From assembly GCF_026914185.1 (NCBI RefSeq), contig NC_070568.1, positions 3,988,001-4,052,000 on the forward strand: a stretch of DNA of 64,000 nucleotides, in the 5' to 3' direction. A program made the position numbers and the translations under genes. The notes beneath the pieces are model-generated. The model did no database searches. It worked only from the letters and a program-made list of their open reading frames with translations, and was not told the DNA's origin. This document shows positions 9,420 through 30,356 of this stretch, one piece after another; position 1 is the first letter of the stretch, and the number at the start of each line of letters is the position of its first letter. This stretch comes from Puccinia triticina (Eukaryota; Basidiomycota; Pucciniomycetes; Pucciniales; Pucciniaceae).

Positions 9420-9740
9420 ATGCACAAGCTTTCCAATGAGCTCAGCTGCCCGCGCTTTCTGGCCATTCTGCTTTGTGGGCATTTTCTGACGGACCACCTA
9501 TTTATACCACCACACTGTGCAGCGGAATTCCACGTCACACCGGGAAACACAGAATACCATGAAAGAGTGGAGCTATTAAAAGGTAGTCAGTGAAGACTAG
9601 GGTTGAATTTGCATGAAAAGAAACAGAATCTGAAGTCAAAAAAAGGCTAAAAATTCAATGTAAAAAGATATAAGCGGTTTTAGACAGAAATAATGATAAA
9701 GGCAGACTTTAGGTCAGCTGTGCTGACTTCAAGGCTGACA
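9420..9740 (-). mobile_element. partial LTR, family A (terminal part, inverted)
   Basis: The block from AGACTAGGGTTGAATTTGCATG to GGCAGACTTTAGGTCAGCTG...GGCTGACA matches the last ~150 bp of the solo LTR at 44253-45186. The upstream part is diverged and the left limit is approximate. It ends at the expected GGCTGACA terminus. Confidence 0.5.
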
Positions 9741-9810
9741 TTAGGTTCATCACAAATCCCCTTGTGACTTGTCATCATCAAATCAATGTGCCAAGTAGTA
9801 CCCCTGGGGG

Positions 9811-10437
9811 TGTGAGCTTGAGTCTCTATAGTGACAGCAGGACACAAGCAAATGGGTGGGGCAATATTTGGATTTCTTGGGATAAAGAAATTACAAATAG
9901 TAGAGAAAAAAAAAGAGAGAGAGAGAGAAGAAGATCTGAGATAAGATATGCAGAGTTTTAATGATATTCTGGTGGGTACTAACTTCCACTGGTAATGCTA
10001 CCTCCTTAAGGGAGTGCTGCCAAGCTGTGCTAGAGATTGCAACAGCCTCTTCTCACCAAGGAAACATGGAAGGCCTCTGAATTAGACAATTCTAATCAGC
10101 CAAAATTCTTTAGACTTCTCTCTGAATAGTCAAGGTTCTTTAAAGGGAAACCTATGTGGTCTGTTTCTCACAAAAACCACAGAAAAAGAAGGATGAATAG
10201 CAGCAGAATCCTTTGGTTAAGAGGTCAAAATATGAGAAGACCTGTGATCAAAGATGGGCAAAAGAAAGCAAATAAAGAGAGCAATCAAGGAGACATAGAG
10301 ATGTAACTCTGAGATAATCAAGGTTCAGTGAAAGATTTTACTTGCTGTCAATATCCTAGGTGCCTGTGATGGTAGGTATACTGGGAGTGTGGTAATCTCT
10401 TTGGTGGTGATCCTGGGGTTATCTGGGGCAATGGTGA
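9811..10437 (-). mobile_element. truncated LTR, family A
   Basis: It starts at the family terminus TGTGAGCTTGAGTCTC and runs colinear with 44253 onward through the GGACACAAG, TTTCTTGGGATAAAG, CAAGCTGTGCTAGAGA and TTCTTTAAAGGGAAACC blocks. It stops within GGTTATCTGGGG, where the CAGCG-rich palindromic sequence begins. The remaining third is missing. Confidence 0.65.
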
Positions 10438-14648: not shown

Positions 14649-15630
14649 TGTGGTAACCCTGTTCCCACTCATATCACCATTCTCATATCATAAATATCCC
14701 TCACATATCCATCATTATTATTCCAGATTCAGATTCTACACCTCATTTTACCCCTAGTCACTCACTCATACCACCCTGAAATTCCCTTTGGATCAGAAGT
14801 TATTAGCATATACAGTTTCATTGGTATTTTCCTGCTTCTCACATTTCATCTACATTACATATTCCAGTCATCATCACCATAGCTACATATATTACACATT
14901 ACATAGTGCTCATCATTACATCACTTCATCATTACATTACATAGTGCTCATCATTACATCACTTCATCATTACATTACATAGTGCTCATCATTACTTCAC
15001 TTCATCATTACATTACATAGTGCTCATCATTACTTCACTTCATCATTACATTACATAGTGCTCATCATTACTTCACTTCATCACTACATTTCATCATTGT
15101 TCATCTTCAGACCTTGTCACATTGTGCTCATCATGATTTCCCCTTGTTGTATTTCCTCACATATATACTCCCCTCTATATGTTGTATCCCCACATTGAAT
15201 TTCTACTCCATACACCCTGTATGACCTTTTCACCACACCATTAGATACACCTTCATCAGTACATATTTCACCACACCATTAGATAACATTGCCATTCACA
15301 CATCTTATACACTTTCATACATACCAGAAATATATCCCCCTGCATATATCATTCACATTTGCACATCACCTTTCATCTTTGCCCCCCGCTACTCCTCCAC
15401 TCCTCCTCATACCCTACAGGTACAAGTAGTCAGCTCATAGTATTAGTCAGTCTAAGATTATAGTAGTAAAGCCACACCTTTCTTCTTTTTCTTAGTGTTA
15501 CACTCATCCCCAGTAGTATTAGTCAGGAAGGCAGCTCTTATATCAGCATCCTTGGCATAGCTTACATTAGTACTAGTGTAGTTATATATTTCCCTTCCCA
15601 GCTCTATTCTCCCATTTGAGTAGTTCCACA
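14649..15630 (+). repeat. 5' LTR of the gypsy element
   Basis: It starts TGTGGTAACC and ends GTTCCACA, with imperfect terminal inversion (TGTGG/CCACA). It contains five tandem units of about 38 bp with the core ACATAGTGCTCATCATTAC (14903-15075). The copy at 25545-27468 has the same plan with one unit shortened by 16 bp. Confidence 0.9.
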
Positions 15631-15632
15631 AG

Positions 15633-15649
15633 TGGTGTCCCAACAGTGG
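15633..15649 (+). promoter_or_regulatory. candidate primer binding site
   Basis: TGGTGTCCCAACAGTGG begins 2 bp after the 5' LTR. It starts with TGG, complementary to a tRNA 3' CCA end. Which tRNA it matches was not determined. Confidence 0.5.
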
Positions 15650-15919
15650 CCTTTCTATACTTCAGAAACATTCAGTCTTAGTAACACTCTTACCATCAGC
15701 TATATACTACTTCTCATACCTCCCTCTTCTCCATCCCTCTTCTCCATCCCTCTTTTCCATACCACTCTTTTTCCCTTCCTCTTCATTTCTACAAAAATCA
15801 CACAAAAACAATAGTCATCAGTTCCTCTTCCACTTTCAGTACCTTCAGTCACTACATACCTATACCTCCTACCTTTCCATCCTCTCCTTTCACCTAACTT
15901 CAGCTACCTTTATCCAGCC

Positions 15920-18313
15920 ATGTCTCAAGCAGGAAACTTCATCAACTTCATAGCTCCCAACCTTTACCCTCCTATGGAAGAAGCTGCCAACCAGGAACCT
16001 GTTGCTAGTACCTCTGCCAATATTCTCCCCAACAACAACAAAACCAATCCTCCAGACATGGCTCCTCCTACTATACCTAGTTTTGGACCCTACAGAAACA
16101 GCTCCCATACATCAGAGGAATCAGACTTTCTAGGAATCCCCATTCATACCTCCAGGAATCCATCCCCTAGAATCCCTTCCAACAGGACCTACATACTCAG
16201 GCCAACAGCACCAGAATCAGTCAGATCAGCCACTCACTTTTTGGATAGGGAAGCAGTCATGCCAGTCTACCAGGCCCCCACTTCCAAAGGAGTCAAGATC
16301 AGACCCATGGACAAGGAACTCTTCTTTGATGGTACCAATATGCCTGTGGAGAAGTTTATTAGGAGGTATGAAAGTGCAGGAGAACATGATGGTGCTAACT
16401 CAAGGGAGCTTGCTGCACAGATAATCTCTTTTCTCAAAGGAATGGACCTAAAGGATGAAGTAGAAGACATGTCAGGCTATGAGGACAGAGACTGGGAAAC
16501 ACTGAAGAAACAATTACTCAACAGATTTGGATCCTCTCAACCTCTGGTCAGATACACTAGACAGGACCTAAGGAATCTAGTCAGCACCACTGCTCAGGGA
16601 GGAGGTATCAGGACTTTGGAGGACTTCAAAACCTTTAGGACTAAATTTGAAACTATTTCTCATTATCTAGTAAGAATGAACTATAGCTCTGACCTGGAGG
16701 AATTTAGAGACCTTTTACTAGAAGCCCTCAGCCAGGAATTGGAACTTGCAGTCACAGATGAACTTCTCAGGGACAACCAAATGCTTTCTACCAAGGATGG
16801 AGGGGATATTCTGCCAAGTACTGAGGTTTTGCTCACCTACATCCACAAAAAGGTCAAATCAGTAGCAGTCATCAACAGGAGGAGACTCAACAGGACAGAT
16901 ACCCCACAGACTAAGGACAACTTACCTGGCATTGCTCCCAAACCTTCTCCTTCCTTGGCTCAACCTTCTCCCTCTATGGCCAAACCTTCTCCTTCCATGG
17001 CCCAACCTGTCAAACCTGCTGAAACAAACCCTTTACAACAACAGCTTGATACTCTCACCAAACAATTTGCTGCCTTCTCAGTTGGAAAATCTATACCACC
17101 TCACATGGACAACACCATTGCAGGATTCAGACCCACCAGATGCTACTACTGCTTTCAGGATACCCATGGAACAACCAGATGCAGCAGGCTCACCAAGGAT
17201 ATCAACTCAGGCCAGGTCATCAAGGAAGGCAGGGACTATAAACTCCCAGATCAAACACCAATTCCATGGGATACTAGGAGACCTATTCTGGATGTAGTAG
17301 AAAAATTTGCCAAGGATTCAGCCAAACTCACTACTTCTTTTGGACAGTTGGAAGATGATGACACCCCTCAACTCACTGCATATGATTCAGACATGGGCAA
17401 AAGGACCAGAGCTTCAGAGGACCAGGAGGAACCAGCACAGCCAGAGAAAAGGACCAGAAAGGAAAAGACCACTCTAATGGATATGGATGCCCAGGACCTC
17501 ATTAATATGGCCAGACCACCAGCTTCTCCAACATCTCCCTCTCCAGCAACCAAAGTCAGATTCCAAACTTCAGATCAGCAATCTTCCAGTAACCCCACCA
17601 AAGAGAAACCTGCCAGAAAAACTTACCTGGAGAAAACCTTGGCCAAAGAATACCCTGGAATAGATGAAGAAATTGCCAAAAGGATCCTTAACCAACAAAC
17701 TATTCAACTCACCATTGGAGAAACTTTTGCCATCTCTCCATCACTCTCTGAGGCAGTAAAAAGGAGGATCACCAACAGAAGAGTTCCAGTAGAGGACTCC
17801 AAATCAGCAAACTCTGGAAATCTAGACCAGGAAGAAGAGGAACCACAGGAACCAACCACTCACTATTCTTGCCCTCTTGGATATATCAACATCAGCATCA
17901 GTGGACAACAACATCAGGCCCTTCTGGATACTGGATCAATGATCAACATCATACCTGAAACTTTGGCCAACAAACTAGGACTCCAGATGACAGCCAAACC
18001 AATGAAGCTCAAAGGAATTGGGGGACACCTTACAGAAATGCCAGGAATTGCTGAAGATGTAACAGTCACCATTGAGAAAGTATCTAGGACAGTTCACTTC
18101 TGGGTAGCCAGGGGATCAGTTCAACTTATCATTGGGAAGCCCTTCTTAATGGATGTATCAGCAACTATCAACTACCATGGGGAGAGAGGAGAATCACTTT
18201 CCATTCAAAGCACCTCAGGACAAACTTACCTGGTTCCAATCCTGCTACCTAGCCACCAGAAATGGAAAACTACTCTACCAGCAAACTCAGCAACTCTGGA
18301 TTTTTTAGTCTAA
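15920..18313 (+). CDS. gag: gypsy Gag-protease polyprotein
   Basis: The 797-residue frame has a Gag region around residues 130-290 (ELFFDGTNMPVEKFIRRYE, MSGYEDRDWETLKKQLLNRF), a Pro/Ser-rich linker with KPSPSMAQP-like repeats, one CCHC zinc knuckle at residue ~408 (C-YY-C-FQDT-H-GTTR-C), a basic/acidic linker, and an aspartic protease with the catalytic DTGS motif at residue ~670, followed by a LIIGKPFL block. Gag packages the RNA and forms the virus-like particle; the protease cuts the polyprotein. The frame ends at TAA 18311-18313, directly after a T TTT TTA heptamer, so pol is expected by -1 frameshifting. The frame is intact and the element could be active for these functions. Confidence 0.92.
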   Translation: MSQAGNFINFIAPNLYPPMEEAANQEPVASTSANILPNNNKTNPPDMAPPTIPSFGPYRNSSHTSEESDFLGIPIHTSRNPSPRIPSNRTYILRPTAPESVRSATHFLDREAVMPVYQAPTSKGVKIRPMDKELFFDGTNMPVEKFIRRYESAGEHDGANSRELAAQIISFLKGMDLKDEVEDMSGYEDRDWETLKKQLLNRFGSSQPLVRYTRQDLRNLVSTTAQGGGIRTLEDFKTFRTKFETISHYLVRMNYSSDLEEFRDLLLEALSQELELAVTDELLRDNQMLSTKDGGDILPSTEVLLTYIHKKVKSVAVINRRRLNRTDTPQTKDNLPGIAPKPSPSLAQPSPSMAKPSPSMAQPVKPAETNPLQQQLDTLTKQFAAFSVGKSIPPHMDNTIAGFRPTRCYYCFQDTHGTTRCSRLTKDINSGQVIKEGRDYKLPDQTPIPWDTRRPILDVVEKFAKDSAKLTTSFGQLEDDDTPQLTAYDSDMGKRTRASEDQEEPAQPEKRTRKEKTTLMDMDAQDLINMARPPASPTSPSPATKVRFQTSDQQSSSNPTKEKPARKTYLEKTLAKEYPGIDEEIAKRILNQQTIQLTIGETFAISPSLSEAVKRRITNRRVPVEDSKSANSGNLDQEEEEPQEPTTHYSCPLGYINISISGQQHQALLDTGSMINIIPETLANKLGLQMTAKPMKLKGIGGHLTEMPGIAEDVTVTIEKVSRTVHFWVARGSVQLIIGKPFLMDVSATINYHGERGESLSIQSTSGQTYLVPILLPSHQKWKTTLPANSATLDFLV

Positions 18314-21300
18314 GGCCAGGCTTCCAACTTCACTCCTTTACAGATGGAATCCTGGACAAAAACCCAAAAGAACCAACTTTAGTCACTCATTCAGCAAAAT
18401 ATAAATCCACTCTAAAAAAAGTAAAACCAGTAAACCTACCTATGCCACTCTCACTCAACCCACCTCTATCAAGGCCTCCACTCTCTAGGGACCCTTACAC
18501 CACTCCTTTGACTCCTTTCCCTCCACCTTTCACTCCTACCTCTAAAATCACTCAAGAAAGACTGGACCTCATCAGCTTTGGACCCCCTGGATGGCTATCA
18601 GAACAAGAATACCTCTTATTAGTTTGGGTCATCACCATCAGACAAGCAGCCTTGGCCTTCTCAGAATCAGAAAGAGGACTGCTCAAACACACCTATGGCC
18701 AACCCTATGTCATCCCAGTCATCCCACATGAACCCTGGCAACAAAAACCAATCCCAATTCCAGCACCCATCAGAAACCAGGTCATAGAATTAGTAAGGGA
18801 AAGACTCAGAACTGGCCTCTATGAAAAATCCTTCTCCAGTTACTCCAGCCCTATTTTCTGTGTCAAAAAGCAGGATGGCAAGTTATGGATAGTCCATGAT
18901 CTTCAGAAACTCAACAAAGTCACTATAAAGGATGCAGGCCTACCACCATCGCCAGAGGAGCTCATAGAATCATTCACTGGAAGGGCATGCTATGGACTAG
19001 GAGACATTATGGGAGGATATGATGAAAGGGAGCTAGCACCAGAATCCAGGCCTCTTACCACTTTTGAAACACCTTTAGGCAGATTCCAACTCACCAGACT
19101 ACCCCAAGGAGCCACCAATTCAGTTGCAGTTTACCAGGCCCAAATGATGTGGATCCTCCAGGATGAACTCCCTCAGCACCTTGGAATCTTCATTGATGAT
19201 GGAGGAATTAAAGGACCAACCTCAGACTATAATGGAGCAACTCTGGATTCCAACCCTCAGATCAGAAAATTCATCTATGAATATGCCATCACCTTGGAAA
19301 GGATACTCTTTAGGATTGAAGAAGCTGGCTTAACTATCTCTGGTAAAAAGTTTGCTTGTTGTGTCCCTGCCTTAGATCTAGTGGGCCATGTTGTCTGCAA
19401 AGAAGGAAGGAAGATATCAACCAAGAAACTCAACAAAATAGAAACCTGGCCAACTCCCAACACAGCCTCTGCAGTCAGAAGCTTTCTAGGTATCTGTGTC
19501 TATGTTAGGATGTTCATCAAAAACTACTCAACTATCACTGCTCCCCTTAGGCATCTTACCAGGAAGGACTCTTCTTGGGATTGGACTCAAGACTGTCAGG
19601 AGGCCTTTGAAGAACTAAAACAAATCATTGGATCAGACATCACTCTCAAGAAGCTGGAATATGGATCAGAAGCTGGCCAAATCAAACTCTCTGTGGATTC
19701 AAGTGTTATTGCAGCAGGAGCAGTACTTACCCAAGTGGATTCCTCTGGACTGGATAGACCTGTGATTTATGAGTCAGTAGTATTTTCAAAAAGGGAATCA
19801 GAATACTCACAATCCAAATTAGAGCTCTGTGGGGTCACCAAAATTCTCAAGAAACTTCAGCATAAACTTTGGGGCCAACATTTTCTACTCAGAGTGGATG
19901 CCAAATGCCTTATTGGAATGATCAACAACCCCTCTCTTCCAAATACTCCTATGAACAGATGGATTGCCTTCATTCAGCTCTTCTCTTTTGATCTAGAACA
20001 TACCCCTGGAAAAACCTTCACCCTCCCAGATGGACTCTCAAGAAGGCCCCCTGATCCTGGTGAAGAAGATTGTCCTAGCTTTGATGAAGATGAACCTTGG
20101 ATTAAGCCACACCCTGGATTTGGACTCAAAAATTCTTCCCTTGGACTCCTTTCTTTTCCTGGATTGCTTCTGGGGACATCAGCTCAGTTGGGGGAGGGGG
20201 TAAAGACCTTACAACAGGGAATATGGAAACACTTACAAGAATATCTCTCAACTATGAACAGACCACCTGGATGCAGCCCCCTGGAATTCAAACAAATTTT
20301 GCACAAATCAGCCAACTTTTTCCTTTCTAATGGAGTCTTGCATAGGATCAACAAACCCTTTTCCCAAATAGTAGTCACCACTCCTTTAGCCCAAATCAAC
20401 ATCCTCAAATCTCTTCATGAAACACTAGACCATAGAGGTATTTCAGAAACATACAGAAGAACTAAACTCAGGTTTTGGTGGCCAGGACTCAAAAGAAGTG
20501 TAACCAGGTGGGTCCAATCCTGTGAAGCCTGCCAGAAAAGGAATTCAGTACTACCCATGGAGCCCAAGAAACCTACTGGAACATCAACAATCTTTGGAAG
20601 GGTCAGCCTGGACACAGTTCACATCAAGGCAGGCAAATGGAAATACTTGGTAATTGCTAGAGATGACCTCTCAGGATGGATTGAAGCTGTTGGTTTGGAA
20701 AATATTCAGGCAAAGAAAATCTCCCAATGGTTCCTGGAAAACTGGATCTACAGATATGGAGCACCTTGGTCAGTTACAGTGGATGGAGGATCAGAATTTG
20801 GACAACAATTTCAAAAATCTCTTCTGGAAGCTGGAATCAAAGTCAAAGTCACCACACCTTACTACCCAGAAGCTAATGGAATGGTGGAAAGAGGACATCA
20901 AGCAATCAAGGACACCCTGGTCAAACTCTGTGGACAAGAAGGCAAGAAATGGAGGAATTATTTACCCTTAGTTTTATTTGCAGATAGGATATCCACCAAA
21001 AGATCAACAGGCTATTCCCCATATGAACTGGTTCTTGGACAATCTCCCATCTTACCCATTGACTTAGAATTGGAGACTTTCTTTGGCATAGACTGGACCA
21101 AAGTGGAATCAACCCAGGATCTTCTTCTAGCTAGGACTCTTCAACTGGAAAATAGGGATTCCACTCTTCAATTGGCACATCAAAAATTACTGGACACCAG
21201 GAAAACATCTGTGGATTACTGGAACAACAAGAAAACACCCAGAAAACCTTTACAGACAGGAGAATTGGTATTAGTATACAACAAATCACTGGACTCTCAA

Positions 21301-21474
21301 TTTGGAAAACTCTTTGAAAATAAATGGAATGGACCTTCCAAAGTAAAATCTCAAAATCCTGGAGGCTCTTATATCCTGGAGGAACTAGATGGAACAGAAC
21401 TGGCCAGGAGATATGCATCAACTCATGTCAAAAAGTATCACTCTAGGACTCTAATATCTGAAAACCCACCATAA
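18262..21474 (+). CDS. pol: gypsy Pol polyprotein: reverse transcriptase, RNase H, integrase
   Basis: The pol frame is open from before 18262 to TAA 21474 and overlaps gag-pro by about 50 bp in the -1 frame; translation probably enters by slippage at 18301-18307 rather than at an ATG. RT shows the catalytic DD as FIDDGG (codon ~312 from 18262), plus GDIMGGYDERE and LTRLPQGATNS. RNase H follows (LSVDSSVIAAGAVLTQVD). The integrase has an HHCC zinc finger (HETLDHRG ... CEACQKR, codons ~718-755), then the DDE core: SLDTVH, TVDGGSEFG (~841) and ANGMVERGH (~876). No chromodomain is seen at the C-terminus. The domain order fits Ty3/gypsy. All catalytic residues looked for are present. Confidence 0.93.
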   Translation: MENYSTSKLSNSGFFSLRPGFQLHSFTDGILDKNPKEPTLVTHSAKYKSTLKKVKPVNLPMPLSLNPPLSRPPLSRDPYTTPLTPFPPPFTPTSKITQERLDLISFGPPGWLSEQEYLLLVWVITIRQAALAFSESERGLLKHTYGQPYVIPVIPHEPWQQKPIPIPAPIRNQVIELVRERLRTGLYEKSFSSYSSPIFCVKKQDGKLWIVHDLQKLNKVTIKDAGLPPSPEELIESFTGRACYGLGDIMGGYDERELAPESRPLTTFETPLGRFQLTRLPQGATNSVAVYQAQMMWILQDELPQHLGIFIDDGGIKGPTSDYNGATLDSNPQIRKFIYEYAITLERILFRIEEAGLTISGKKFACCVPALDLVGHVVCKEGRKISTKKLNKIETWPTPNTASAVRSFLGICVYVRMFIKNYSTITAPLRHLTRKDSSWDWTQDCQEAFEELKQIIGSDITLKKLEYGSEAGQIKLSVDSSVIAAGAVLTQVDSSGLDRPVIYESVVFSKRESEYSQSKLELCGVTKILKKLQHKLWGQHFLLRVDAKCLIGMINNPSLPNTPMNRWIAFIQLFSFDLEHTPGKTFTLPDGLSRRPPDPGEEDCPSFDEDEPWIKPHPGFGLKNSSLGLLSFPGLLLGTSAQLGEGVKTLQQGIWKHLQEYLSTMNRPPGCSPLEFKQILHKSANFFLSNGVLHRINKPFSQIVVTTPLAQINILKSLHETLDHRGISETYRRTKLRFWWPGLKRSVTRWVQSCEACQKRNSVLPMEPKKPTGTSTIFGRVSLDTVHIKAGKWKYLVIARDDLSGWIEAVGLENIQAKKISQWFLENWIYRYGAPWSVTVDGGSEFGQQFQKSLLEAGIKVKVTTPYYPEANGMVERGHQAIKDTLVKLCGQEGKKWRNYLPLVLFADRISTKRSTGYSPYELVLGQSPILPIDLELETFFGIDWTKVESTQDLLLARTLQLENRDSTLQLAHQKLLDTRKTSVDYWNNKKTPRKPLQTGELVLVYNKSLDSQFGKLFENKWNGPSKVKSQNPGGSYILEELDGTELARRYASTHVKKYHSRTLISENPP
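18301..18355 (+). promoter_or_regulatory. programmed -1 ribosomal frameshift signal (gag-pro to pol)
   Basis: The heptamer T TTT TTA (18301-18307) is in the correct register in the gag frame (gaT TTT TTA gtc taa). After an 8-nt spacer, the arms CCAGGCTTCC (18316-18325) and GGAATCCTGG (18346-18355) can pair with one C/T mismatch around a 20-nt loop. A -1 slip here continues as FFSLRPG in the pol frame. All three parts of a classic site (slippery heptamer, 5-9 nt spacer, stem) are present. Confidence 0.8.
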
Positions 21475-21495
21475 AAAAAAAAAAAAAAAAAAAAA
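21473..21495. terminator. A-tract between convergent pol and antisense gene stops
   Basis: A run of about 23 A lies between the pol stop (21474) and the antisense gene stop (21503-21505). It may act in 3' end formation for one or both transcripts; it may also be a length-variable homopolymer with no role. Confidence 0.3.
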
Positions 21496-21502
21496 TTCCT
21501 CC

Positions 21503-23174
21503 TCATAAGTCTCTGCCCTCCTCCCTTCTAAATCTAGCCCACTCAATAGGATCCCATTCTAATATACCATAAAAGATAAAAGAATTAAAAATACGGACTT
21601 ACTTCGCGCACTGCGAAAAGCTCTTCGCGCACTGTGCAGTGCGCGAAGTTTGCAAACACTTCTCGCACTGCGCGTGAAGGGCGCAACTTTTTCAAATTAT
21701 TTTTTGACCAATCAATAGACAAGCTTATTATTGTCCTCTGTGAATTTATTTGGAGTTTTTTGAAGCTTCCTTGTATGCTTAAAAATCCCACCAATAAAAA
21801 AAACAAGTACAGCCATTTGGGGACCTGGAATTCATATTCCCACAGGCCAAAAAATCCAATTAATTTATAGAATCATATTAAACATGTATTTAAAAGTTTT
21901 AGAACTTTTTGGCCACTTTGTACAAGGACAAGGCTTTCAAAAACCAGTAACTGTTTCTCAAGATATGCCAAAATGCGCCAGTAAGTGGTGAACTTTCCTA
22001 ATTTTTGAAAGCCTTATTCTTGCACAAAGTGGCCAAAAAATTCTAAAAAGTTTGAATTCATATGTATCATTATTCACTAAATTATTTGGATTTTTTGACT
22101 GGTGGGAATATGAATTCCAGGTCCCCAAATGGCTGTACTTGTTTTTTTTATTGGTGGGATTTTTAAGCATACAAGGAAGCTTCAAAAAACTCCAAATAAA
22201 TTCACAGAGGACAATAATAGGCTTTTCTATTGATTGGTCAAAAAATAATTTGAAAAAGTTGCGCCCTTCACGCGCAGTGCGCGAAGTGTTTGCAAACTTC
22301 GCGCACTGCACAGTGCGCGAAGTGTTTGCAAACTTCGCGCACTGCACAGTGCGCGAAGAGCTTTTCGCAGTGCGCGAAGTAAGTCCGTAAAAATAAGAAA
22401 ATTAGTAAAATAAACACAAAAATAATGATAATAATAATAAAAGAAAAGAAATGTATAAATATTAAATAGAAACACTAGGACTTACCAGCATCAGACATTC
22501 TTCGGGCTCTCTCTCTATCTTCTCTAGTTCTCAACTCTTCATCGCGTTCTCTTCTCAAGCTAGCGGCTTCCTCTCGTTCTCTTTTGCGTCGGACTCGGCG
22601 GCTGGCGCGGTTTCTTTGGCGACGGAGGCGCATTGTGTTGGCACGACGTTCTTGGCGCTCGAGTTCTGCTCTCGCAATAGTCTCAAGGTCTTCGGTTCGA
22701 GTATTCGACAGATCAATCATCTATCACGCCAGATACGGATAAATAGCTTAGCTAAAAATAAACCGATATAATATATAAGACAGATAAAATAAAACTGACT
22801 CGGTTGTAGTGTTCTTCAAATTGAGCAAAGAGTAGTTCCTTAGCTCGTCTAGCGGCCATGGGATCTTGGTGTTCGGCCTGCACGAACTCTACGAATTCCT
22901 GTTCCATCGCGCTGTGGAAAACTTGGGCCCCACGAAAGGGAATATTCTCGGCTACAAAGGCCGCTTGGACAGGCATGAATGGCGTATCGAAAGCAAGAGA
23001 GTCTGGCGTATGCGACTCGTCATTTTGGATTGGAAACATCACGTGGTCGGATTCGCTCGAAACGTCTCTCATAGAGGTACCATCAATGCTGGAGGCGTAA
23101 GAATCGAAGTCGATGGGGTGGGCAAAGGAACTGCCTTCAATCAGGGCGATAGGAGCGGCGTGGATAGTGGACAT
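21503..23174 (-). CDS. antisense three-exon gene inside the gypsy element
   Basis: On the strand opposite to gag-pol a spliced frame can be built. Exon 1 is 23174-22800 (MSTIHAAPIALIEGSS..., acidic, Ser/Asp-rich, ending QFEEHYNR), with intron 22799-22721 (GTCAGT...GATAG). Exon 2 is 22720-22486 (MIDLSNTRTEDLE..., then an Arg/Glu-rich region with RRQRNRASRRVRRKRE). Intron 2 is 22485-21559 (GTAAGT...TATTAG). Exon 3 is 21558-21503 (EWDPIEWARFRREEGRDL, stop). Phases agree and give 221 residues. A TATATAAA box lies 50 bp upstream of the ATG. The foldback element 21592-22389 sits inside intron 2, so the frame survives it. The basic block resembles a bZIP basic region only loosely and no regular leucine zipper follows. 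Function unknown. A longer in-frame start exists at 23270, but the TATA position favours 23174. Confidence 0.6.
21592..22389. mobile_element. foldback (long-inverted-repeat) MITE in an intron of the antisense gene
   Basis: A 798-bp element has arms of about 360 bp that are near-perfect inverted copies, from TACGGACTTACTTCGCGC to GCGCGAAGTAAGTCCGTA. Repeated words GCGCGAAG and CTTCGCGCACTG make up the outer parts. A-rich flanks (AAAA on both sides) hide any short target duplication. No coding capacity: frames on the two strands mirror each other. Confidence 0.8.
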
Positions 23175-23223
23175 CGTTGGATAATTGGATGAGTTGTGGA
23201 CATAAATGACGGATAACGCTCGG

Positions 23224-23231
23224 TTTATATA
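23224..23231 (-). promoter_or_regulatory. TATA box of the antisense gene
   Basis: TATATAAA on the minus strand lies about 50 bp before the ATG at 23174. It is the best core-promoter match nearby and supports transcription opposite to the retrotransposon. Confidence 0.55.
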
Positions 23232-23333
23232 TGTTGTGGAGTCACCCTTACGGCTCGAACGTTTGGCCAAAGCATCCTGGTCTCAGCCTATGGACGAATC
23301 AGGACGGTTTCTTTCTTTGATCTCTTCACATGG

Positions 23334-23519
23334 CGACGCCGGTGTACGACCCGGATTGGTTTCCTCTTTTTTTTTTTATCTCTAATCACTAGGCGACGCC
23401 GGTGTACGACCCGGACGGTTTCTTTCTTTGATCTTTTCTCATTAAGCGACGCCGGTGTGCGACCCGGATTGGTTCCTTTTCCTTTTCATTGCACATTTCG
23501 ACGCCGGTGCGCGACCCGG
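23334..23519 (-). promoter_or_regulatory. four upstream repeats with CGCCGGTGTRCGACCCGG core
   Basis: Four near-identical cores start at about 23334, 23394, 23447 and 23499, spaced 52-60 bp, separated by pyrimidine-rich stretches. They lie 100-290 bp upstream of the antisense TATA box. Each holds CGG and CCG triplets eight bases apart, the kind of site bound by fungal Zn2Cys6 factors. An upstream activating array is likely; the binding factor is unknown. Confidence 0.5.
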
Positions 23520-25529
23520 ATTGGCTTTCATTTCCTTTATGGTTGACTTCCTTTTCATTTACCTACCTACCTTGGGCATTATTGGATTGCGCGCGACCTA
23601 CGCGACGGACTCGCCGCAGCACGCGACTTGCTACATGGATACAGACCGGCATCTGGAAACTGGACATTTGGGGAAAAATCAACAAAATTCCCTACAATAT
23701 AAAAGAAAGGGAGAAATCCTATCATTCCACTTTTTGGGGGGGGGAGAGATATATATAGATATATAGGGAAAAGGAGGCACTCAGAGAACAATCATCTTCA
23801 TCTTCATCCACAAAATCAACAAGCTTATGGACCCAAAGGGGCATAAAATACCCTCCTATCTCATATAAATTCCATCACCTGGATAACCATTTTATCAGAC
23901 ATCTTTTCCTCCTTCCTCTATTCCTCCTTCCTCTATAAAATCCTTCCATCACCTCTTCCAGATAAATCATCCTCTTTTATACTCATTTTAGAATATCAGA
24001 ATCAGTCAGGTTAAGCATCAGAAAAGACATCATCCCACCTCATTACAAATATGTAGAACTTCAACAAATCAACTCATCCTCAACTCTTCATCCTTCCTCT
24101 ACTTCTTCTATCTGAAATCACTTCATCCTACATATTTCCCTCTTCTGATTAGGCTTTTCCTAAATTTTTCTCTCATCATCACTTCCACCATTCCCTCATC
24201 AAACATCTCATTCATCATCTCACTGGATCTTTTCCATATCAGTTCCCTATTTTTCTGCAGTTTAGTTATCCCTTCTTTTAGAACACTGGACCTGGCTTTA
24301 TCCACTATTGGAACCTTCAGAAACTCAGCCTATCTTGGACACCATCTCAACTCTCTTTTCCCTTATGAAACACTGGATCTAGCTACTTCATGGATTGGAA
24401 CCCTCAGGAACTCAGTCACTATTGGTCACCATATCACTTTTTCTTCCTCATCACAAATTTATCACTTCACATCATTCAGACATCAACATCATCTTCAATT
24501 TCTATTCCCTGAATCTGGACCCCTCATTCTTTCCTTGGATCAGTCATCAGTTTCTTTCAGAAATAGTTATATGGCCATACTGGATCTTCTGGAGTTCTTG
24601 GACAGTTGCTAGATATACCCTTCCTCTTATCTTATGATTTAGACTTCCCACCACTCTGGACCATCATTAGTTTCACTGGCATTTTTGAAGAGACCTTCAC
24701 TTACTTCTATTCTAAAGCTGAACCCCATCCTCTCAGATTCCTAGAGTGATAGTTTACTATCTAGGTCTTTTCCATCATCTCAGATTCCTAGAGTGATAGT
24801 TTACTATCTAGGTCTTTTCCATCATCTCAGATTCCTAGAGTGATAGTTTACTATCTAGGTCTTTGTTTATCATCCCATATTCCTAGAGTGATAGTTTACT
24901 ATCTAGGTTATGTCCATCATCTCATCTTCCCAGAGTTATAGTTTACTATCTAGGCTTGTTGTTGTTGTTTACCCGCCATATGTCTATACTGTTTTGAGTA
25001 TAGCAAGGGTCTTCTCATTTAGCTTCCATCATTTGTAGTAACCTCTAGTGTGTTACTGGTGATATTGTTATACCAATCCCTCAGCTTTAGTTTTTAGAAA
25101 TAGTTTAGTATCAATATTAGTAATAGTGGATCTTCTAGATATATGTAGTGTTAAGATTTTTCATATCATAGTTTATTAGTTAGTTTTATCAACCTTCTGG
25201 ACCTGGACTTTGGACTTTTCTTTGGACATTGGACCCCTTGGATTGGATCATCAGGACTTCTCCTTTTGGACTTGGACCCTTGATAGTATACCTGGATTCC
25301 ATTTTCCCTTGTTTGTGTTTGAATAATAGGCCTCCTTGGTTGGACACTTGATTCCCTCTTTGGATTTGGACCTCCTGGACTTGGCATCTTTGGTTGGATG
25401 GTACTTCCCTCCTTGGATTGGATCAACTCCTCAATTTTCCTTCTTATCTTTTTCCTTTAAATCTTACTTCTTATTTTACTTTACTTCTTCTTAATTTCCC
25501 TTTTTCCTCTGATGTCTGGGGACAGACAT
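23520..25529. other. noncoding 3' internal region of the gypsy element
   Basis: About 2 kb is pyrimidine-rich (CTTCATC, TTCCTC words) with no convincing frame on either strand. It contains the tandem array listed at 24729-24952. Confidence 0.55.
24729..24952 (+). repeat. tandem array, five units of ~47 bp
   Basis: Units share CCTAGAGTGATAGTTTACTA followed by TCTAGGT and a variable TTTTCCATCATCTCA spacer. Each unit contains an inverted pair (CCTAGA...TCTAGG; ATAGTTTACTAT). Five copies are visible, the last with GTTATA in place of GTGATA. The role is unknown; RNA hairpins in the retrotransposon transcript are possible. Confidence 0.75.
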
Positions 25530-25534
25530 TTACT

Positions 25535-25544
25535 TGGGGGGGGA
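25535..25544 (+). promoter_or_regulatory. polypurine tract
   Basis: A run of eight to nine G followed by A directly precedes the 3' LTR start TGTGGTAACC. This is the expected place and composition for the plus-strand primer of an LTR retrotransposon. Confidence 0.75.
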
Positions 25545-27468
25545 TGTGGTAACCCTGTTCCCACTCATATCACTGTCAGCCTTAGAGTCAACACAGCTGA
25601 CCTAAAGTCTGCCTTTTTCTACTTTTTACATATGAATTACTTCATATCTTTTTCATCTTATGAGATAACCTTGTTTTGACTTCATATTCTGTTTCCTCAT
25701 GCAATTTTAACCCTAGTTACAACTTACCAATTCTCTGTAACTCTACTCCTTCCCTGAGTTCTTGAGTTGTGGCGCGCATGCGCAGTTGTGATGTGTCAGC
25801 GCTACCAGGCGCGCCAAACCACATGTACATATGTAATTACATAAGCAAACTGTGAAAATTTTCGAAGTCAGGATCCCCCTTGCCTGAGGAGGATCTACAG
25901 ACTTCAGCAGACCAGAACCACACCTCCAGACAACCCAGGATCACCAGAACAAGGCCACTACACTCCCAGTATCACCAACAGGAATATTGACAGTTAGTAC
26001 CCTTTTCATTGAACCTTGATTATCTCAGAGGAGTTCCTCTCTGTCTCTTTGACTGCTTTCTCTCCTCTCTTGTTTGTTTCTCTCCTCTTTGATCACAGGT
26101 ACATATACCTCTAGACATCTACTCTCAAGGATCAAATCACTTCATATCCTTCTTTTTCTGTGGTTTTTGTCAGTAACAAACCACATAGGTTTCCCTTTAA
26201 AGAACCTTGACTATCCACAGAGAAGTCTAAAAAATTGTGGCTGATTAGACTTGTCTAATTCAGATACCTTCCACGTTTCCATTGTGAGAAGAGGCTGTTG
26301 CAATCTCTGGCACAGCTTGGCAGCACTCCCTTAAGTAGTAGCATTGCTAGTGGATGTTAGTTCCCACCTACAGGTCAACAGAACCTTGAATATCATCTCT
26401 CAGATCATCTATTTCTCTCTCTCTCTTTTTCTCTTACTGTTTGTTATTTCTTTATCCCAAGAAATCCAAGCAGTGCCCACCCATTTTTCTTGTGTCCTGC
26501 TGTCACATAAGAGACACAGGCTCACAATCACCATTCTCATATCATACATATCCCTCACATATCCATCATTATTATTCCAGATTCAGATTCTACACCTCAT
26601 TTTACCCCTAGTCACTCACTCATACCACCCTGAAATTCCCTTTGGATCAGAAGTTATTAGCATATACAGTTTCATTGGTATTTTCCTGCTTCTCACATTT
26701 CATCTACATTACATATTCCAGTCATCATCACCATAGCTACATATATTACACATTACATAGTGCTCATCATTACATCACTTCATCATTACATTACATAGTG
26801 CTCATCATTACATTACATAGTGCTCATCATTACTTCACTTCATCATTACATTACATAGTGCTCATCATTACTTCACTTCATCATTACATTACATAGTGCT
26901 CATCATTACTTCACTTCATCACTACATTTCATCATTGTTCATCTTCAGACCTTGTCACATTGTGCTCATCATGATTTCCCCTTGTTGTATTTCCTCACAT
27001 ATATACTCCCCTCTATATGTTGTATCCCCACATTGAATTTCTACTCCATACACCCTGTATGACCTTTTCACCACACCATTAGATACACCTTCATCAGTAC
27101 ATATTTCACCACACCATTAGATAACATTGCCATTCACACATCTCATACACTTTCATACATACCAGAAATATATCCCCCTGCATATATCATTCACATTTGC
27201 ACATCACCTTTCATCTTTGCCCCCCGCTACTCCTCCACTCCTCCTCATACCCTACAGGTACAAGTAGTCAGCTCATAGTATTAGTCAGTCTAAGATTATA
27301 GTAGTAAAGCCACACCTTTCTTCTTTTTCTTAGTGTTACACTCATCCCCAGTAGTATTAGTCAGGAAGGCAGCTCTTATATCAGCATCCTTGGCATAGCT
27401 TACATTAGTACTAGTGTAGTTATACATTTCCCTTCCCAGCTCTATTCTCCCATTTGAGTAGTTCCACA
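25545..27468 (+). repeat. 3' LTR of the gypsy element, interrupted
   Basis: The first 29 bp (25545-25573) and 26532-27468 together match the 5' LTR. They are separated by the solo LTR 25574-26526 plus the repeated ATCAC. Only three base differences from the 5' LTR were noticed (near 26547, 27144 and 27424), plus one 16-bp deletion in the tandem units. Confidence 0.9.
25574..26526 (+). mobile_element. solo LTR, family A, target duplication ATCAC
   Basis: This 953-bp insertion begins TGTCAGCC and ends GGCTCACA (inverted termini TGTSAGCC). It is flanked by ATCAC at 25569-25573 and 26527-26531. Removing it and one ATCAC restores the gypsy LTR sequence seen at 14649. It matches the inverted copy at 44253-45186 over its length. 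It is younger than the gypsy insertion. Confidence 0.93.
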
Positions 27469-29839: not shown

Positions 29840-29943
29840 GAGAGATGCCCTCCCCCCCCTTTTATGTCCAACGCCCCCCGCGGGGCTGACAGAATGGGCG
29901 TGAGGATTCCGGATGGAATTCCACCTGACTTGAGTCATTTGGT
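29840..29943. other. spacer after the accessory gene
   Basis: C-rich sequence between the accessory gene stop and the minisatellite; nothing recognised. Confidence 0.3.
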
Positions 29944-30356
29944 CCCCCCCCAGCTGGGCAAGGGCCGCAAACCGGGCACTTTGTGATTCCTGGTTCCTGC
30001 CTGGGCAAGGGCTGCGAACCAGGAACTTGGTGAATTCTGGTTCCTGCCTGGGCAAGGGCCGCGAACTGGGAACTTAGCGGTTCCTGGTTCCTGCCTGGGC
30101 AAGGGCCGCGAACCGGCAACTTAGCGGTTCCTGGTTCCTGCCTGGGCAAGGGCCGCGAACCGGGAAATTAGCGGTTCCTGGTTCCTGCCTGGGCAAGGGC
30201 CGCGAACCGGGAACTTGTTGATTCCTGGTCCATGCCTGGCCAAGGGCCGCAAACCGGGCACTTCAGCAAAAAAGTGGCCCACTTGAGCAAAAGTGGCCCG
30301 CCTGGCCAAGGGCCGCAAACCGGGCACTTCAGCAAAAAAGTGGCCCACTTGAGCAA
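29944..30356. repeat. minisatellite, ~47-bp units
   Basis: Units carry the core GCCTGGGCAAGGGCCGCGAA followed by CYGGGAACTTAGCGGTTCCTG. About six close copies are followed by two longer variants with CACTTCAGCAAAAAAGTGGC. The array lies between the accessory gene and the transposase inside the Tc1-type element. Minus-strand frames across it are repeat by-products. Confidence 0.75.

What the first reader, a model, noticed from the sequence alone, without database searches (positions are those of the whole stretch)
21503..23174. Spliced antisense gene carried between pol and the 3' LTR of a gypsy retrotransposon
Three exons with matching phases, a TATA box 50 bp upstream and four upstream repeats form a complete gene opposite to gag-pol. 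Being antisense, its introns are not removed from the genomic retroelement RNA, so it can be copied with introns intact. Its stop lies only 29 bp from the pol stop. The product (221 residues, acidic N-part, Arg/Glu-rich C-part) matches no family I know. Antisense genes occur in some plant gypsy elements and in deltaretroviruses, but I know of no spliced example in a rust element.
Basis: partly seen in the sequence, partly recalled or inferred. Interest (0 to 1): 0.85.

Follow-up and report, generated by a model that had tools for sequence, protein, structure and literature searches.

The report
Spliced antisense gene in rust retrotransposons
A lineage of virus-like jumping elements in a rust fungus carries a real, spliced gene on the strand opposite to its other genes, found beside nearly every copy examined and kept by selection, and its first exon comes in several old, divergent versions while neighbouring genes are almost identical.

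Summary
The minus-strand gene (exons 23174-22800, 22720-22486, 21558-21503; 221 aa) has GT-AG introns, a TATA-like box and four upstream 21-bp repeats. Intron 2 is long mainly because an ~800-bp foldback element sits in it (91 bp in a sister copy). The gene belongs to a whole Ty3/gypsy lineage of this genome (probably Puccinia triticina): 126 of 131 scored pol-end matches have an antisense gene within 5 kb on the opposite strand, none on the same strand. Intron phases (0, then 1) recur in the A/B, C and D1 families. Selection acts on the protein: dN/dS 0.12-0.19 in the more divergent comparisons, 0.42 in the closest pair, shifted frames 0.85-2.7. A public P. triticina gene model (PTTG_07521) shows the same two junctions. 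Unexpectedly, in sampled copies of the >100-copy C family the antisense promoter and exon 1 form an island of old divergence (dS 0.92; sample chosen partly for divergence) between similar pol (0.095) and LTR, with a recombination break near exon 2. Antisense accessory genes here are known in plants and Botrytis, so the kind is known. Function is inferred: a small trans-acting regulator.

The parts
14649..15630 (+). 5' LTR (TGTGG...CCACA), lacks about 950 bp that the 3' LTR has; GCGG flanks the element on both sides
15815..18313 (+). gag-protease ORF (stop to stop)
   Evidence: Pfam aspartyl protease
18253..21474 (+). pol ORF (RT, RNase H, integrase), in the -1 frame relative to gag
21503..21558 (-). 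exon 3 of the antisense gene, TGA stop at 21503-21505
21559..22485 (-). intron 2 (GTAAGT...AG), phase 1
   Evidence: 91 bp in the C6 copy
21592..22389 (.). foldback (long inverted repeat) element inserted in intron 2, flanked by AAAAAT
   Evidence: absent from the C6 copy
22486..22720 (-). exon 2, Arg/Glu-rich
22721..22799 (-). intron 1, phase 0
22800..23174 (-). exon 1 (125 aa), acidic N-part and a stretch weakly predicted as two helices
23224..23231 (-). TATA-like box (TATATAAA)
23334..23519 (-). four 21-bp repeats CCGGGTCGYRCACCGGCGTCG, start spacing 60, 53, 52
25545..27468 (+). 3' LTR, preceded by a G-rich polypurine tract

Best explanation
SHOWN (about 0.93): the element carries a protein-coding accessory gene on the minus strand between pol and the 3' LTR, with two introns whose positions and phases are conserved in three family groups, and selection keeps the protein. 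Because the gene is antisense, its splice signals are reversed in the sense genomic RNA, so new copies keep the introns (logic, not measured). It is a standing part of this gypsy lineage in this genome. INFERRED (about 0.4): it is expressed from its own internal promoter (TATA box plus repeat array) and encodes a small trans-acting regulator of the element's own life cycle, as proposed for plant antisense proteins (Grande gene23, Retand TRP28) and known for HTLV HBZ. The most conserved part ends exon 1 and is weakly predicted as two helices, perhaps a protein-contact surface, between an acidic/Ser-rich N-part and a charged tail that is basic in A/B and acidic in C. The divergent, shuffled exon-1 blocks suggest that the partner or target differs between sublineages. 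The confidence given below is for the whole statement.
For: Splice solution. Same junctions and phases in A, B, C and D1. dN/dS: C exon 1 median pairwise 0.135 in 21 copies, shifted frames 1.43 and 2.33; A vs B 0.142, last 155 codons 0.087, but dS saturated and no shifted-frame control run for this pair; D1 pair 0.194 vs 0.957 and 2.726 shifted. On the sense strand over C exon 1 all three frames have stops in 21 of 21 copies. 126 of 131 pol matches have the gene, 0 same-strand. A/B-C profile match, E 6e-4, ending at the same intron. PTTG_07521: 79% identity over 99% of my spliced C prediction; RNA-Seq-guided gene set (passages). Upstream motif conserved in A and B; a weaker form, 5 mismatches, upstream of C. 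Plant precedents (passages).
Against: No expression data seen. No Pfam family passes its cut-off in five antisense proteins (A, B, C as P0001, D1, D2), no PDB sequence match for A/B exon 1, poor structure models (mean pLDDT 54.5 and 49.8). A/B-C profile probability is only 28%. The closest pair, A vs C6, gives 0.416 overall and 1.128 in exon 2 on few changes, with shifted frames 0.851 and 1.283. One sense-strand frame over C exon 1 has pN/pS 0.367, though with stops in every copy. The basic tail is not shared by C. The motif array also occurs where I saw no antisense ORF, so it may not be only that gene's promoter.
Confidence: 0.6

Rival explanations
1. The protein is a partner of Gag or the particle (assembly, copy-number restriction or nuclear entry), not a transcription regulator.
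For: Weakly predicted helices and a charged tail could serve protein contacts. The first 300 bases of the fetched gag stretch are also more variable than the rest in 6 C copies (0.14-0.17 vs 0.02-0.06).
Against: Exon-1 and gag-start distances do not correlate in those 6 copies (r 0.04; little power). No domain evidence.
Confidence: 0.2
2. The protein counters host silencing, and the divergence of exon 1 reflects an arms race.
For: Fast divergence between families; exon-1 third positions differ more (0.36 over all pairs) than intron 1 (0.19).
Against: Within C the protein is under purifying selection (0.12-0.135), not dN/dS above 1. Per-site tests were not run.
Confidence: 0.2
3. The antisense RNA itself (dsRNA with the genomic RNA) is the functional product and the ORF is incidental.
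For: Tail-to-tail arrangement can form dsRNA; discussed for plant elements (passage).
Against: Conservation is at codon level against shifted frames; splice sites and phases are kept.
Confidence: 0.04
4. A host gene was captured recently and rides along passively.
For: Gene capture by LTR elements is known (recalled).
Against: Present beside 126 of 131 pol matches, integrase 71-100% like the window's. The A protein search of the genome gave 60 rows at about 23 places, which look like A/B copies or fragments from their exon order; not every surrounding was read.
Confidence: 0.03

Closest known systems
Plant Retand/Grande/RIRE2 antisense ORFs between pol and 3' LTR (gene23, TRP28 domain PF04195)
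   Same: Antisense ORFs at the same place; own promoter reported for Grande gene23; regulatory role proposed (passages of PMC7264820 and PMC11963269)
   Different: No TRP28 hit here. The word intron occurs 0 times in either main text. Plant, not fungal, hosts.
Botrytis cinerea Boty/BcGypsy1 antisense gene brtn (Zhao 2011)
   Same: Extra antisense gene in a fungal gypsy element (title in reference list; passage of PMC8365987)
   Different: The 2011 paper was not read and the sequence not compared; ascomycete host; whether it is spliced is unknown to me.
HTLV-1 HBZ
   Same: Antisense gene of a retroelement, described as nuclear and critical in the virus life cycle (passage of PMC11963269); a spliced form is recalled
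   Different: HBZ is a bZIP protein (recalled) and HTLV has its antisense promoter in the 3' LTR (passage). No bZIP hit here and a TATA-like box lies inside the element.
PTTG_07521, PTTG_28437, PTTG_02592 (P. triticina BBBD hypothetical proteins)
   Same: PTTG_07521 is a C-family antisense protein with the same two junctions; PTTG_28437 spans both junctions too
   Different: Named only as hypothetical proteins in the sources shown; PTTG_02592 departs before the first junction.

Membership tests
Antisense additional ORF class (aORF-3R) of LTR retrotransposons | ORF between pol and 3' LTR, antisense to gag-pol, in most copies of a family | tested here: met
   126 of 131 scored pol matches
Antisense additional ORF class (aORF-3R) of LTR retrotransposons | transcribed from its own promoter | not testable with these tools
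   TATA box and repeats only; no reads available
Retand TRP28 proteins | Pfam PF04195 domain | tested here: not met
   No PF04195 hit for A, B, C (P0001), D1 or D2 proteins at E up to 10; the filters drop most hits above about 0.1
HBZ | bZIP domain | tested here: not met
   No bZIP Pfam hit under the same limits
HBZ | promoter in the 3' LTR | tested here: inconclusive
   TATA-like box 50 bp upstream of the ATG, about 2.3 kb from the 3' LTR; true start site unmapped
Botrytis brtn | sequence homology to BRTN | not tested
   BRTN sequence was not obtained
Ty3/gypsy | order protease-RT-RNase H-integrase between LTRs | tested here: met

The most novel reading that the evidence does not exclude
The antisense promoter plus exon 1 is a recognition or immunity cassette of the retrotransposon: many old allele-like versions are held in the element population by frequency-dependent selection, recombination moves them between otherwise homogenised elements, and each version acts on its own sublineage (like repressor-operator blocks of temperate phages).
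Probability: 0.15. Interest if true: 0.9.

Novelty: new variant of a known kind. Interest (0 to 1): 0.72.

Why it matters
It gives a fungal case where an antisense accessory gene of a retrotransposon is supported by codon-level selection, splice conservation and a public gene model as a real, lineage-wide part of the element. The island of deep divergence over exon 1 makes a question testable that is otherwise hard to pose: do retrotransposon families carry recognition alleles that are swapped between copies? It also warns that at least one rust gene catalogue lists such accessory genes as plain hypothetical proteins.

Tried and rejected
Chance ORF: rejected by dN/dS with shifted-frame controls. 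Sense-strand protein as cause of conservation: stops in 21 of 21 copies in all three sense frames. Host promoter origin of the repeat array: 6 places outside the gene copies were fetched; 5 (L063, L064, L065, L067, L068) show gag- or leader-like frames by eye and no pol in the stretch, L066 was unclear (two printed). LTR and exon 1 as one co-varying module: suggested, withdrawn because the C9 copy did not align there; without it the LTR-side stretch is only 3-11% divergent and exon-1 and LTR distances are uncorrelated in 6 copies (r 0.03). Fold search was not run because both models had low confidence. The protein search with A found nothing (982 candidates); with C it found three P. triticina entries among 122 candidates. 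Paper searches listed nothing I recognised as this lineage.

Full report
WHAT IS THERE. The window lies in an 18-contig, 122.8-Mb genome. It is probably Puccinia triticina: the protein matches of the C-family gene are P. triticina BBBD entries; the species was not otherwise shown. A Ty3/gypsy element runs from 14649 to 27468, with gag-protease and pol in a -1 frame relation. Its LTRs share a 958-column alignment with 3 mismatches and one gap opening (98.0% identity with gap columns counted), which suggests a young insertion. Between the pol stop (21474) and the 3' LTR (25545) the minus strand carries the reported gene. The stated features check: three exons, GT-AG junctions, 221 aa, TATA-like box and four 21-bp repeats.

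INTRON 2. Its 927 bp contain a foldback element (arms 92-98% complementary) flanked by AAAAAT. The sister copy on contig C6, 92% identical, has a 91-bp intron 2 and no insertion. The C6 copy does not have the window's stop codon at the same place; its frame runs on.

DISTRIBUTION. DNA and protein searches of the genome gave the A family (window, C6, fragments) and a B family of near-identical copies with the same three exons. Of the 16 B copies aligned, C4, C5a, C8b and C11a carry a stop and C1b and C11c a one-base indel. Most exon-2 rows list one TAG; this is the acceptor TAG of intron 1 that the match ran into. Four relatives with integrase 71-88% like the window's were then fetched. The C family (L051) has an antisense gene with introns in phase 0 and phase 1. 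D1 (L053) has a 3-exon gene with the same phases, repeated in a second copy 52% identical in exon 1 (L094). D2 (L052) has an intronless 138-aa antisense ORF; 33 of 35 rows are near-full and 32 of those 33 have no stop. In the fourth, L054, I saw no antisense gene by eye; a D1-type exon with 2 stops was found there later.

Of 131 scored matches to the pol end (2726 candidates, the rest not scored), 126 have an A/B, C, D1 or D2 antisense match on the opposite strand within 5 kb and none on the same strand. Of the five without, four have such a match on the opposite strand 5-11 kb away in the lists; one (C12:4351174) has none. One search was given part of the lists: 24 A/B places, the C list without some fragment and weak rows, 14 of 24 D1 rows, and of D2 only the 3 rows beside scored pol matches. 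In one search, 128 rows matched C exon 1; 104 cover at least 112 of 118 residues and 90 of these have no stop (recount; frameshifts not assessed).

HOMOLOGY OF THE FAMILIES. A and B proteins align over their length. A/B and C exon 1 match by profile over 41 columns (E 6e-4, probability 28%, 22% identity), ending at the same phase-0 intron. Low-confidence models of both put two helices there. B and the second D1 copy share the start MSYxNPII. D2 homology is not shown.

SELECTION. C exon 1 in 21 copies (22 loci, one duplicate place dropped; one copy, L081, has a stop): summed pN/pS 0.234, median pairwise dN/dS 0.135; shifted frames 1.43 and 2.33; sense-strand frames pN/pS 1.03, 0.37 and 2.16, each with stops in all 21. 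A vs B: dS 2.5 (saturated), dN/dS 0.142; last 155 codons 0.087; pol of the same families dS 0.67, dN/dS 0.109. A vs C6: 0.416 overall, 0.268 in exon 1, 1.128 in exon 2, on 34 changes; shifted frames 0.851 and 1.283. D1 pair: 0.194; shifted frames 0.957 and 2.726. The protein is what is conserved.

PUBLIC GENE MODEL. The spliced C protein matches PTTG_07521 at 79% identity over 99% of the query, both 195 aa. That model uses the same two junctions and, from its last residues, seems to add a third intron and a tiny last exon, which suggests transcript evidence (inference). The paper on that genome says gene sets incorporated RNA-Seq data and that strand-specific libraries were made for most samples (passages); it does not mention this gene by its PTTG name (0 occurrences of PTTG).

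THE ISLAND. In 18 of 20 C copies (two lacked 200 pol codons), exon 1 has mean dS 0.92 and dN 0.114, the last 200 pol codons 0.095 and 0.011. Gag-protease in 6 copies has dS 0.18. Along 6 copies, divergence is 3-11% in the LTR-side stretch, 15-37% from about -1400 to +500 around the antisense ATG, and 1-8% beyond. A seventh copy, C9, was dropped because its upstream part did not align. In 20 copies the distances of exon-1 halves and intron 1 correlate strongly (0.78-0.87) but not with intron 2-exon 3 (0.06-0.09); exon 2 is in between (0.49-0.51 with exon 1 and intron 1, 0.60 with intron 2-exon 3); with pol (19 copies) they correlate weakly or not (-0.01 to 0.23). This marks a recombination break near exon 2. 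Caution: the copies were chosen because their exon 1 was divergent (11 of the 18, 5 of the 6), so the exon-1 values are too high for the family as a whole. In the full list exon-1 identity to L051 still spans 65-100% in the near-full rows.

THE REPEAT ARRAY. CCGGGTCGNNCACCGGCGTCG has 66 exact matches in the genome and none for the reversed control. Many lie upstream of A and B antisense genes; at least five other places lie in what look like element derivatives without pol nearby (by eye). CGG-N8-CCG resembles sites of fungal zinc-cluster regulators (recalled, not tested). That such derivatives keep the array suggests a cis-acting role beyond one promoter (inference).

HOW IT MOST LIKELY WORKS. 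The host transcribes and splices the minus strand from the internal promoter; the protein acts in trans on the element. The genomic RNA carries the gene in reverse, so introns survive reverse transcription. A regulator role is the best guess by analogy with plant and retroviral antisense proteins (passages), at about 0.4; a Gag partner or silencing antagonist are close rivals.

NOVELTY. Antisense accessory genes at this place are a known kind (plants, Botrytis). I did not find a spliced, lineage-wide one in rusts, searches limited to open papers and read as listings; the Zhao 2011 paper itself was not read. The divergence island over exon 1 is the most surprising result.

Noticed in passing
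window 14649-15630 and 25545-27468: The 5' LTR lacks about 950 bp of the 3' LTR although the shared parts are nearly identical; inverted pieces like the missing part lie at 9695-10333.
   Followed up: partly
window 21592-22389; L076 3' flank: A foldback element with long inverted repeats; what looks like the end of the same repeat appears beside the antisense gene of another C copy (by eye).
   Followed up: partly
G000:C13:5464160-5474899: Four copies of C exon 1 with starts spaced 3462 bp, each with one TAA: probably a tandem array of an element piece.
   Followed up: no
G000:C17:2497625-2509830: B-type antisense exon 1 and exon 2 about 12 kb apart, probably one gene split by an insertion.
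   Followed up: no
L063, L064, L065, L067, L068: Stretches that keep gag- or leader-like pieces and the 21-bp repeat array without pol (by eye).
   Followed up: partly
L088-L093, first 300 bases in gag orientation: The start of the fetched gag stretch is 14-17% divergent among 6 C copies against 2-6% for the rest.
   Followed up: partly
C exon 1 vs intron 1: Exon-1 third positions differ more between copies (0.36) than intron 1 (0.19), not the usual expectation.
   Followed up: no
window 29907-30329: Tandem 47-bp repeats.
   Followed up: no
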